Shown here: positions 52,822 through 59,967 of the stretch, in pieces
Layout: the number at the start of each line of letters is the position of its first letter
Numbering within the stretch: the first letter of the stretch is position 1
Source: Ramlibacter albus
GTDB lineage: Bacteria > Pseudomonadota > Gammaproteobacteria > Burkholderiales > Burkholderiaceae_C
Assembly (NCBI RefSeq): GCF_014297445.1
Contig: NZ_JACORU010000008.1
Span: forward strand, 186,001-250,000
Length of the DNA: 64,000 nt
Direction of reading: 5' to 3'
The notes under the pieces: model-generated
Databases searched by the model: none
What the model was told of the DNA's origin: nothing
Seen by the model: the letters and a program-made list of their open reading frames with translations, nothing else
Position numbers and translations under genes: made by a program

Positions 52822-55800
52822 ATGATGGACAAAGCAGTTACGGCTCCGGTTGCACGGAAGAAAACATCCCGTGCGACACATACGCCCCCGTTGGGCCCCA
52901 TCCAGACCGTCGATGCCGCCGAGGCGCAGGCCCGGCACATCCTCGCGGCGCTGCGCGCGTTCGCGAACGGGGATTTCTCGATGCGGCTGCCCGTTACCTG
53001 GAGCGGCACGGATGCGAACATCGCGGAGGCGTTCAACCATTGCATCGCGAACGCCGAGCGCATCACCAACGAGGCCGCGCGGCTGTCCAACAACGTCGGC
53101 AAGGAAGGCCGGCTTGCGCAGCGTATCTCGGCCCCCGGCACCATGGGCGGCTGGGCCGAGCAGGTGGATTCGCTCAACACCCTGATCGACGACCTCGTGC
53201 GGCCGACGACCGACATCGCGCGCACGATCGGCGCGGTGGCCAAGGGCGACCTCGGCCAGTCGATGGAACTGCAGGTGGAAGGCCGGCCGCTCAAGGGCGA
53301 GTTCCTGCGCTCGGCCAAGCTGGTGAACAGCATGATCGAGCAGCTGTCGGTCTTCACGTCCGAAGTAACCCGCGTCGCGCGCGAGGTGGGCACGGAGGGC
53401 AAGCTGGGCGGCCAGGCGCAGGTCAAGGGCGTGTCGGGCGTGTGGAAGGACCTCACGGATTCCGTGAACCAGATGGCCGGCAACCTGACGGCGCAGGTGC
53501 GCAACATTGCCGACGTCACCATCGCCGTGGCGAACGGCGACCTGTCGAAGAAGATCACGGTGGACGTGCGCGGCGAAATCCTGCAGCTGAAGGAAGCCAC
53601 GAACACCATGGTGGACCAGCTGCGCTCGTTCGCGTCCGAAGTGACGCGGGTCGCGCGCGAGGTCGGTACCGACGGCCGCCTCGGCGGCCAGGCGGTGGTG
53701 CCGGGTGTGGCGGGGACGTGGAAGGACCTCACGGACTCCGTCAACTCGATGGCCAACAACCTCACCTCGCAGGTGCGCAACATCGCGACGGTGACGACGG
53801 CCGTGGCGCGCGGCGACCTCTCGCGCAAGATCACGGTGGACGTGAAGGGCGAGATCCTGGAGCTGAAGGAAACCATCAACACGATGGTCGACCAGTTGAA
53901 CGGTTTCGCTTCGGAAGTGACGCGCGTGGCGCGCGAAGTGGGTACCGAAGGCCGCCTCGGCGGCCAGGCCCACGTGCCGGGCGTGGCGGGCACGTGGAAG
54001 GACTTGACCGACTCGGTCAACTCCATGGCCTCCAACCTCACGGGCCAGGTGCGAAACATCGCCGACGTGGCGACCGCCATCGCCAAGGGCGACCTCTCGC
54101 GCAAGATCACCGTGGAGGTGAAGGGCGAGATCCTGCAGCTGAAACAGACCATCAACACGATGGTGGACCAGCTCAACGCTTTCGCGGGCGAAGTGTCCCG
54201 TGTCGCGCGTGAAGTGGGTACCGAGGGCAAGCTGGGCGGCCAGGCCGCGGTGGAAGGCGTGGCCGGCACGTGGAAGGACCTCACGGACAACGTGAACTTC
54301 ATGGCGTCCAACCTCACGGGCCAGGTGCGCAACATCGCCGAGGTGACCACCGCTGTGGCCAACGGCGACCTCTCCAAGAAGATCACGGTGGACGTGCGCG
54401 GCGAGGTGCTGGAGTTGAAGAACACCATCAACACGATGGTGGACCAGCTGAACGGCTTCGCTTCCGAAGTGACGCGCGTGGCGCGCGAGGTGGGTACCGA
54501 AGGCAAGCTGGGCGGCCAGGCCGCGGTGCCGGGTGTCGCCGGCACGTGGAAGGATTTGACCGACTCCGTGAACTTCATGGCCGGCAACCTGACGGCGCAG
54601 GTGCGCAACATCGCCGAGGTGACGACGGCCGTCGCGCGGGGCGACCTCTCCAAGAAGATCACCGTGGACGTGCGCGGCGAAATCCTGGAGCTGAAGAACA
54701 CGATCAACACGATGGTGGACCAGCTCAACGGCTTCGCGGGCGAGGTGTCCCGCGTGGCGCGCGAGGTGGGCACCGACGGCAAGCTCGGTGGCCAGGCGCA
54801 GGTGCCCGGCGTGGCCGGCACGTGGAAGGACCTCACGGACAACGTGAACTCGATGGCGTCCAACCTCACGGCGCAGGTGCGCAACATCGCGGACGTGGCG
54901 ACCGCGGTGGCCAACGGTGACCTCTCCAAGAAGATCACGGTGGACGTGAAGGGCGAAATCCTGGAGCTGAAGAACACCCTCAACACGATGGTGGACCAGT
55001 TGAACGGCTTCGCCTCCGAGGTGACGCGCGTGGCGCGCGAGGTGGGCTCCGAAGGCAAGCTGGGCGGCCAGGCCGTGGTGCGCGGCGTCGCCGGCACGTG
55101 GAAGGACCTGACCGACAACGTCAACTCGATGGCGAACAACCTGACCGGCCAGGTGCGCAACATCGCGGAGGTGACGACGGCCGTGGCGAAGGGCGACCTG
55201 TCGCGCAAAATCACGGTGGAAGTGAAAGGCGAAATCCTGGAGCTGAAGAACACCATCAACACGATGGTGGACCAGTTGAACGGCTTCGCTTCCGAAGTGA
55301 CGCGGGTGGCGCGCGAAGTGGGTACCGAAGGCAAGCTGGGCGGCCAGGCGGCGGTGCCGGGTGTGGCGGGCACGTGGAAGGACCTCACGGACAACGTGAA
55401 CTTCATGGCGTCCAACCTGACGGGCCAGGTGCGCAACATTGCGGACGTGGCAACCGCCATTGCGCGGGGCGACCTCTCGCGCAAGATCACCGTGGAGGTG
55501 AAGGGCGAAATCCTCGCGCTGAAGGAAACCATCAACACGATGGTGGACCAGCTCAACGGCTTCGCGGGCGAAGTGTCGCGCGTGGCCCGTGAAGTGGGTA
55601 CGGAAGGCAAGCTCGGTGGCCAGGCGCAGGTGCCCGGCGTGGCCGGCACGTGGAAGGACCTCACGGACAACGTCAACTCGATGGCGTCCAACCTGACCAA
55701 CCAGGTGCGCAACATCGCGGACGTGACGATCGCCGTGGCCAACGGCGACCTCTCGAAGAAGATCACCGTGGACGTGCGCGGCGAGATTCTCGAGCTGAAG

Positions 55801-59967: not shown

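What the first reader, a model, noticed from the sequence alone, without database searches (positions are those of the whole stretch)
52822..59967. Giant cytoplasmic poly-HAMP hybrid kinase resembling fungal group III osmosensors
The protein has fourteen regular 92-residue HAMP-type units with no membrane segment, then GAF, kinase core and three receivers. Nik1/Os-1 of fungi have about five to nine such repeats, and most bacterial HAMP kinases have one or two next to a membrane helix. A 14-unit soluble array is extreme, and three receivers in series suggest branched or multi-step signalling. Group III kinases are targets of phenylpyrrole and dicarboximide fungicides, so a bacterial relative is interesting for evolution and mechanism.
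Basis: partly seen in the sequence, partly recalled or inferred. Interest (0 to 1): 0.78.

Follow-up and report, generated by a model that had tools for sequence, protein, structure and literature searches.

The report
Giant poly-HAMP kinase with receiver-kinase partner
A real but not unusual giant bacterial signalling kinase from a large and already described family; what stands out is that its fourteen repeats each keep their own identity across related genera and that it is paired with a receiver-bearing partner gene, a layout like that of Streptomyces OsaA/OsaB.

Summary
The ORF at 52822-59967 is real: 14 repeats of exactly 92 residues, no membrane helix, then GAF, HisKA/HATPase and three receivers. 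Each repeat is probably two HAMPs, with about three divergent HAMPs in front. The genome is a Ramlibacter. The kind is in print in bacteria (Myxococcus AskA/AskB, Sorangium Amb07, Streptomyces OsaA), and a near relative's N-terminal HAMPs are in the PDB (9trj/9trk). Placement relative to fungal group III kinases could not be tested.

Two results go beyond the finding. (1) Orthologues keep unit identity by position: in units 2-12, 56-81 of 102 unit-specific residues are retained in each of 13 orthologues (means 22.6-26.9 by shuffling), while silent sites keep almost no positional memory. The repeats are not interchangeable spacers. (2) A gene starting with a distinctive receiver lies directly downstream in 67 of 95 loci; a Streptomyces locus, outside that count, has a kinase-less version that looks like OsaB. 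I read 52822-61668 as an OsaAB/AskBC-type two-gene relay. Signal and phosphate route are inferred.

The parts
52822..59967 (+). poly-HAMP hybrid histidine kinase gene, 2381 aa (P0001)
52927..53352 (+). N-terminal region with about three divergent HAMP-like modules (residues ~36-177); aligned by sequence to solved chains 9trk/9trj
   Evidence: residues 16-314 align to 9trk_A, E 8.5e-117
53353..57216 (+). array of 14 units of 92 residues (276 bp), each probably two HAMPs
53629..56664 (+). interior units 2-12, in which unit-specific residues are conserved by position
56665..57216 (+). C-terminal cap units 13 and 14, matching the last two units of the Rhizobium-like set (86, 91%) and of the second copy's clade (87, 78%)
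57292..57705 (+). GAF_2 domain, residues 1491-1628
57943..58146 (+). HisKA, residues 1708-1775; phospho-acceptor His1717 (codon at 57970)
58288..58656 (+). HATPase_c, residues 1823-1945
58804..59136 (+). receiver 1 (approximate bounds), Asp2043
59170..59511 (+). receiver 2 (approximate bounds), Asp2165; aspartate lost in some relatives
59608..59943 (+). receiver 3, Asp2312
59965..59976 (+). stop codon TAG overlapping an AGGAG-type ribosome site, 9-bp gap to the next ATG: translationally coupled pair (inference)
59977..61668 (+). partner gene, 563 aa (P0002): REC - linker that looks coiled-coil by eye - HisKA - HATPase - REC
60013..60351 (+). N-terminal receiver of the partner (residues 13-125), proposed acceptor from the poly-HAMP kinase; Asp61 in 69 of 69 aligned rows

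Best explanation
A two-gene signalling module of the OsaAB/AskBC type. Gene 1 is a soluble poly-HAMP hybrid kinase: about 31 HAMP modules form a long parallel rod (known HAMP behaviour) that sets the on/off state of the GAF-HisKA-HATPase core. Gene 2 (P0002) carries the cognate receiver at its N-terminus, fused in this lineage to a second hybrid kinase. Proposed flow: rod and GAF state -> autophosphorylation of His1717 -> receiver 3 (and 1, 2) and/or the N-receiver of P0002 -> P0002 kinase output. Likely input: osmotic or related stress, by analogy with OsaAB and with the glycerol/ambruticin response of AskABC. Shown here: anatomy, gene pairing, conservation of catalytic residues, one clade of cores, position-specific conservation of the repeats. 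Inferred: rod shape, phosphate route, input signal. The position-specific conservation suggests that order and length of the array are functional.
For: Domains and catalytic residues. A receiver-first partner directly downstream in 67 of 95 loci with room; other kinase ORFs of the same loci: 1 of 74, or 0 of 48 with the same room filter (39 of the 48 are partner-type kinases, so the control is weak). In the nine partners scanned the C-part varies behind the receiver (HK-REC, PAS-HK, PAS-HK-REC, GAF-HK-REC, PAS-HWE). Streptomyces sp. BHT-5-2 has an 11-unit kinase frame of 1854 codons followed by a receiver protein without kinase, the layout printed for OsaA/OsaB (PMC9739842, passages read); its receiver falls in the 23-row partner set with support 100. 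askC lies immediately downstream of askB, and Rec3 of AskA interacts with the receiver of AskC in a two-hybrid test (PMC7643160, passages read). 31 poly-HAMP cores form one group, support 100. Unit-specific residues are retained by position, even in a shortened array.
Against: 28 of 95 loci lack the partner, 22 of them Oxalobacteraceae, so the kinase can work without it. Neither S. coelicolor OsaA/B nor M. xanthus AskB/C was fetched; the link to them rests on published layout plus one Streptomyces relative. osaA and osaB are reported as not transcriptionally coupled, and deleting osaA has a milder effect than deleting osaB (PMC10117811, passages read). At the aligned column of the partner receiver's lysine only 38 of 69 rows have Lys. 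No phosphotransfer data.
Confidence: 0.62

Rival explanations
1. The array is a passive spacer: units are interchangeable, and their number drifts by unequal crossing-over.
For: Unit number differs between clades (6, 11, 14) and within the window's own clade: of 17 intact full-length members 13 have 14, the others 12, 12, 13 and 6, and one cut by a contig end has at least 15. An expansion/contraction between two Myxococcus species is in print (PMC4603909, passage read).
Against: Each interior unit keeps its own residues across genera while four-fold silent sites show almost no unit memory (aa excess 0.39-0.73, silent -0.01 to 0.19). Even the 6-unit member (L068) has units 2-6 matching window units 10, 11, 12, 13, 14 in order at 93-97%.
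Confidence: 0.15
2. The HAMP array is a nucleic-acid-binding scaffold, as proposed for AskB at the mrpC promoter, and the kinase acts at promoters with a transcription factor.
For: AskB (gel shift, pull-down) and AskA (pull-down) bind mrpC promoter DNA in vitro (PMC7643160, passages read). Pfam also gives SpoIIID and HTH_6 matches here.
Against: Those matches have 0 stretches passing on their own and sit beside equally unlikely summed matches (GatB, FliE, tRNA pseudouridine synthase), so they look like an artefact of repeat summing.
Confidence: 0.12
3. It is a true bacterial orthologue or donor of fungal group III osmosensing kinases.
For: Same class of cytoplasmic HAMP-repeat hybrid kinase; PMC7643160 calls the myxobacterial relatives group III-like.
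Against: GAF and three receivers here; no fungal sequence could be reached, so no phylogeny. PMC11253588 calls group III fungal-specific.
Confidence: 0.3
4. Artefact of assembly or of a GC-rich reading frame.
For: Tandem 276-bp repeats at 80% identity can mislead assemblers; long spurious ORFs overlap in other frames.
Against: 13 orthologues in other genomes have 14 units in the same order, 92-97% identical unit by unit.
Confidence: 0.01

Closest known systems
Myxococcus xanthus AskA/AskB with AskC, and Sorangium Amb07 (PMC7643160)
   Same: soluble poly-HAMP hybrid kinase with receivers; for AskB a second hybrid kinase gene immediately downstream
   Different: different phylum; sequences not fetched by name; AskC's domain order is not given in the passages read; ambruticin/glycerol role not tested here
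Streptomyces coelicolor OsaA/OsaB (SCO5748/SCO5749; PMC9739842, PMC10117811)
   Same: large hybrid kinase, thought cytosolic, with more than ten HAMPs next to a receiver-coiled-coil regulator; a Streptomyces relative shows the same layout and its receiver groups with the P0002 type
   Different: OsaB has no kinase, P0002 does; one receiver match in the Streptomyces relative's kinase against three here; osa genes reported as not co-transcribed
Fungal group III hybrid kinases (Nik1, Os-1, TcsC, Bos1, DhNik1)
   Same: N-terminal HAMP repeats; hybrid kinase
   Different: six HAMPs in TcsC and Bos1 (title in the PMC11253588 reference list; PMC3418262 passage) against 14 double units; GAF and three receivers here; fungal HOG pathway absent from bacteria
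Aer2 poly-HAMP (PDB 3lnr) and PDB 9trk/9trj
   Same: concatenated HAMPs; 9trk_A aligns over residues 16-314
   Different: Aer2 is a chemoreceptor with three plus two HAMPs (PMC3570549 passage); 9trk is a fragment fused to Gcn4p; I saw no paper on it in the listing

Membership tests
Bacterial poly-HAMP hybrid kinases (AskB/OsaA type) | tandem 92-residue HAMP units, no membrane helix | tested here: met
Bacterial poly-HAMP hybrid kinases (AskB/OsaA type) | kinase core grouping with other poly-HAMP cores | tested here: met
   31 poly-HAMP cores plus one relative below the unit threshold form one group, SH-aLRT 100, of 97 cores (quick tree, no bootstrap)
Bacterial poly-HAMP hybrid kinases (AskB/OsaA type) | adjacent gene beginning with the cognate-type receiver | tested here: met
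   controls
Bacterial poly-HAMP hybrid kinases (AskB/OsaA type) | direct orthology to the named AskB or OsaA | not tested
   the named proteins were not fetched
Fungal group III hybrid kinases | HAMP repeats at the N-terminus, no membrane helix | tested here: met
Fungal group III hybrid kinases | kinase core branches with fungal group III | not testable with these tools
   no fungal sequence collection on hand
Fungal group III hybrid kinases | kinase followed by a single receiver, no GAF (recalled from general knowledge; PMC7643160 speaks of several receivers) | tested here: not met
   GAF_2 and three Response_reg
Fungal group III hybrid kinases | relay to a Ypd1-type Hpt and the HOG pathway | not testable with these tools
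   genome has 18 Hpt matches at E<=0.001, 17 over the cut-off, all in open frames of 741 residues or more; their link to this kinase is unknown
Poly-HAMP chain (Aer2 type) | helix-connector-helix modules about 46 residues apart in an uninterrupted chain | tested here: inconclusive

The most novel reading that the evidence does not exclude
The poly-HAMP rod is an ordered, individually encoded device rather than a repeat: each of the 14 double-HAMP units has its own conserved signature, so the array may be a series of distinct coupling stages or docking sites, or an address along a rod. With it, OsaAB (Streptomyces), AskBC (myxobacteria) and the proteobacterial pairs are one ancient two-gene module whose invariant output is a receiver with a helical tail and whose second kinase is a swappable add-on.
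Probability: 0.45. Interest if true: 0.62.

Novelty: new member of a known kind. Interest (0 to 1): 0.42.

Why it matters
HAMP arrays are usually treated as generic relay rods. Showing that individual units are separately constrained while silent sites have lost positional memory makes it testable whether signal passes through distinct stages. Joining OsaAB, AskBC and the many unstudied proteobacterial kinases of this kind into one module would give an interpretable function to a common but largely uncharacterised gene pair. The fungicide angle remains open, since the fungal branch was not placed.

Tried and rejected
Assembly artefact: rejected by 13 orthologues. 'Extreme array': rejected (55 of 120 listed hits with 14 units, 11 of 120 with more). 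Broader locus: in the fetched flanks (roughly 5 kb upstream, up to 10 kb downstream) the Crp-like gene and the downstream HK-REC-Hpt gene had no match at E<=1e-40, and the listed best matches to the upstream PAS-GAF-HK-REC kinase were partner-type kinases, at most 362 bits (14 rows shown). Profile comparison of the two halves of the unit found only the shared flank, so gave no support for two HAMPs by sequence. Rfam on the window at gathering score: nothing. Phages: no match to three repeat units. Promoter/terminator scans of 52200-53000 and 59800-62100: no promoter-like site; two terminator-like sites after P0002 (61829-61878) against 1.2 expected. Structure search: no Foldseek match at E<=0.001; Aer2 poly-HAMP entries rank 1, 3 and 4 at E 0.06-0.11. 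Literature: no fungal-bacterial phylogeny of group III kinases was seen in the listings; no paper on conserved unit identity in poly-HAMP arrays or on joining OsaAB with AskBC was seen in the listings (open papers only; one search lists 25 of 39 papers, 20 of 76).

Full report
WHAT IS THERE. The ORF 52822-59967 encodes 2381 residues. Residues 178-1465 are 14 units, each spacing exactly 92; TRF reports the 276-bp array. Pfam finds 14 HAMP and 15 HAMP_2 stretches, GAF_2 (1491-1628), HisKA (1708-1775), HATPase_c (1823-1945) and three receivers. The highest 19-residue hydropathy is 1.22, so no membrane helix is indicated. The genome holds a second poly-HAMP kinase on contig C12, with 11 units and its own downstream receiver-GAF-HK-REC gene.

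NOT RARE. By motif count 55 of these 120 have 14 units and 11 have 15-17 (which also counted P0001 and P0002). The list favours proteins like the query. In a draw of 299 Pseudomonadota genomes, own genome included, 23 match the GAF-kinase core at E<=1e-110, with at most five candidates scored per genome, so a lower bound. In 114 genomes of the phylum of a Polyangiaceae genome, that genome included, 9 match at E<=1e-90. Of 24 congeners 20 match at E<=1e-80, 12 of them with a core 80-86% identical to this one, the others with the type of the second copy; none of 16 genomes from other families of the order matches at that cut. The genus is Ramlibacter: congener G022 shares all 4386 60-mers of its fetched locus with the record named R. 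monticola.

ONE CLADE. In a tree of 97 kinase cores the 31 poly-HAMP cores plus one relative below my unit threshold form one group with SH-aLRT 100; other hybrid kinases from the same loci, including P0002, lie outside. This is a quick tree without bootstrap and without fungi.

THE UNITS ARE INDIVIDUAL. Of 17 intact full-length members of the window's own clade 13 have 14 units, three have 12, 12 and 13, and one (L068, a MAG scaffold) has 6; one more, cut by a contig end, has at least 15. In the 13, unit i is 92-97% identical in amino acids to unit i of the window but 79-80% to the other units. L068 has an N-terminus of another type, but its units 2-6 match window units 10-14 in order at 93-97%: a recombinant, or a chimeric bin, in which unit identity is still legible. 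In interior units 2-12 of the window there are 102 residues that differ from the commonest residue of their column; 56-81 of them are retained per orthologue, against means of 22.6-26.9 and a maximum of 39 over 500 shuffles of residues among units within columns. At four-fold degenerate sites the same-unit match is barely above the shuffled-unit match: excess -0.01 to 0.19, against 0.39 to 0.73 for the residues. Silent sites have therefore lost nearly all positional memory while unit-specific residues have not, which argues for selection on individual units. Cautions: the window is the only reference, the 13 comparisons are not independent and were chosen for having 14 regular units, and codon bias limits the silent-site signal. 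The same pattern holds in a 6-unit Oxalobacteraceae set (best match at own position 908 of 918), an 11-unit Rhizobium-like set (594 of 726) and three members of the second copy's clade (28 of 33), with clade lists chosen after seeing the counts. The last two units are recognisable caps across three of the four sets; the 6-unit set matches the last one only.

THE PARTNER GENE. P0002 starts 9 bp after the kinase, whose stop codon lies in the ribosome site. It is REC-linker-HisKA-HATPase-REC; that the linker is a coiled coil is my reading by eye. Among 97 loci, 95 had 1.2 kb or more downstream; 67 of 95 have an ORF there with the same receiver type at its front (not de-duplicated, a few loci are the same contig fetched twice). 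Controls: 1 of 74 other kinase ORFs in the same loci has such a neighbour (no room filter); with the room filter 0 of 48, but 39 of those 48 are partner-type kinases themselves, so few independent kinases were tested. Of the 28 misses 22 are Oxalobacteraceae; in L176 the partner lies upstream instead. Behind the receiver the nine partners scanned vary: HK-REC, PAS-HK, PAS-HK-REC, GAF-HK-REC, PAS-HWE. The receiver's phospho-acceptor Asp is present in 69 of 69 rows, Lys at the aligned column in 38 of 69. In Streptomyces sp. BHT-5-2 an 11-unit kinase frame of 1854 codons is followed by a frame of 288 codons that opens 61 bp after the stop codon; the receiver begins about 280 bp after the kinase and the likely start codons give 219-247 residues, without a kinase match. 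That receiver falls with all 19 thinned partner receivers in a 23-row set of support 100, which also holds four rows labelled 'other' (few columns, quick tree).

COMPARISON WITH PRINT. I read passages of the papers named, not whole texts. PMC7643160: AskA, AskB and Amb07 are group III-like poly-HAMP kinases; askC lies immediately downstream of askB; AskA Rec3 interacts with the AskC receiver in a two-hybrid test; AskC binds ambruticin weakly. PMC9739842: OsaA is a hybrid kinase of 1829 residues, without membrane helix, with more than ten HAMPs; OsaB a receiver with a coiled coil. PMC10117811: osa genes are adjacent but not transcriptionally coupled; osaB loss impairs osmoadaptation, osaA loss has a minor effect. 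PMC4603909: a poly-HAMP tract expanded or contracted between two Myxococcus species. So the kind is known; the common module and the individual units were not seen in print in the listings.

MECHANISM. Of 91 aligned relatives (chosen by an H-box motif, so His is present by construction) 91 keep the N-box Asn and the G1 Asp; receiver 3 keeps its Asp in 89 (two gaps), receiver 1 in 89, receiver 2 in 77. I infer autophosphorylation, transfer to receiver 3 and to the partner's receiver, and a rod whose ordered units tune the kinase. The input is unknown; osmotic or related stress is the best guess from OsaAB and AskABC.

VERDICT. An ordinary member of a known bacterial kind by itself; the unit-by-unit conservation and the shared module are the parts worth a specialist's time. 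On checking, the weaker control made me lower the main confidence from 0.65 to 0.62.

Noticed in passing
G000 contig C12:167232-176068 (L010:9233-18069): Second poly-HAMP kinase in the same genome (11 units), with its own downstream receiver-GAF-HK-REC gene; its receiver 2 has Glu for Asp.
   Followed up: partly
window 62054-64501 (L009:55-2502): Hybrid kinase PAS-HisKA-HATPase-REC-Hpt with a likely membrane segment (by eye), 385 bp after P0002; no match beside the fetched orthologues.
   Followed up: partly
window 50254-52284 (-) and 48925-50169 (-): PAS-GAF-HK-REC kinase and a Crp-type regulator upstream on the other strand; not seen as conserved neighbours in the fetched flanks.
   Followed up: partly
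window 52795-61350 (-) and 57243-60029 (+): Very long spurious ORFs in other frames over the array and core, from GC-rich codon use and a 276-bp period; the second one misled two of my own searches.
   Followed up: yes
window 52822-59967: Pfam lists SpoIIID, HTH_6, GatB, FliE and others for the array with 0 stretches passing alone; the helix-turn-helix domains reported for AskA/AskB may be the same repeat-summing artefact.
   Followed up: no
L068:2171-7165 (MAG Ramlibacter sp. RYN_591): Six-unit member of the window's clade: N-terminus of another type joined to units matching window units 10-14; natural recombinant or chimeric bin.
   Followed up: partly
L065 (record titled Nostoc sp. CHAB 5715): An 8-kb, 2.7x coverage contig carrying a core 74% identical to the window's and the P0002-type partner: looks like a burkholderialean contaminant in a cyanobacterial assembly.
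   Followed up: no
L070, L084, L090 and other Oxalobacteraceae loci: Six-unit clade with 98-100% unit-by-unit identity that lacks the receiver partner; in one locus the next gene is CheR-like.
   Followed up: partly
   Followed up: no
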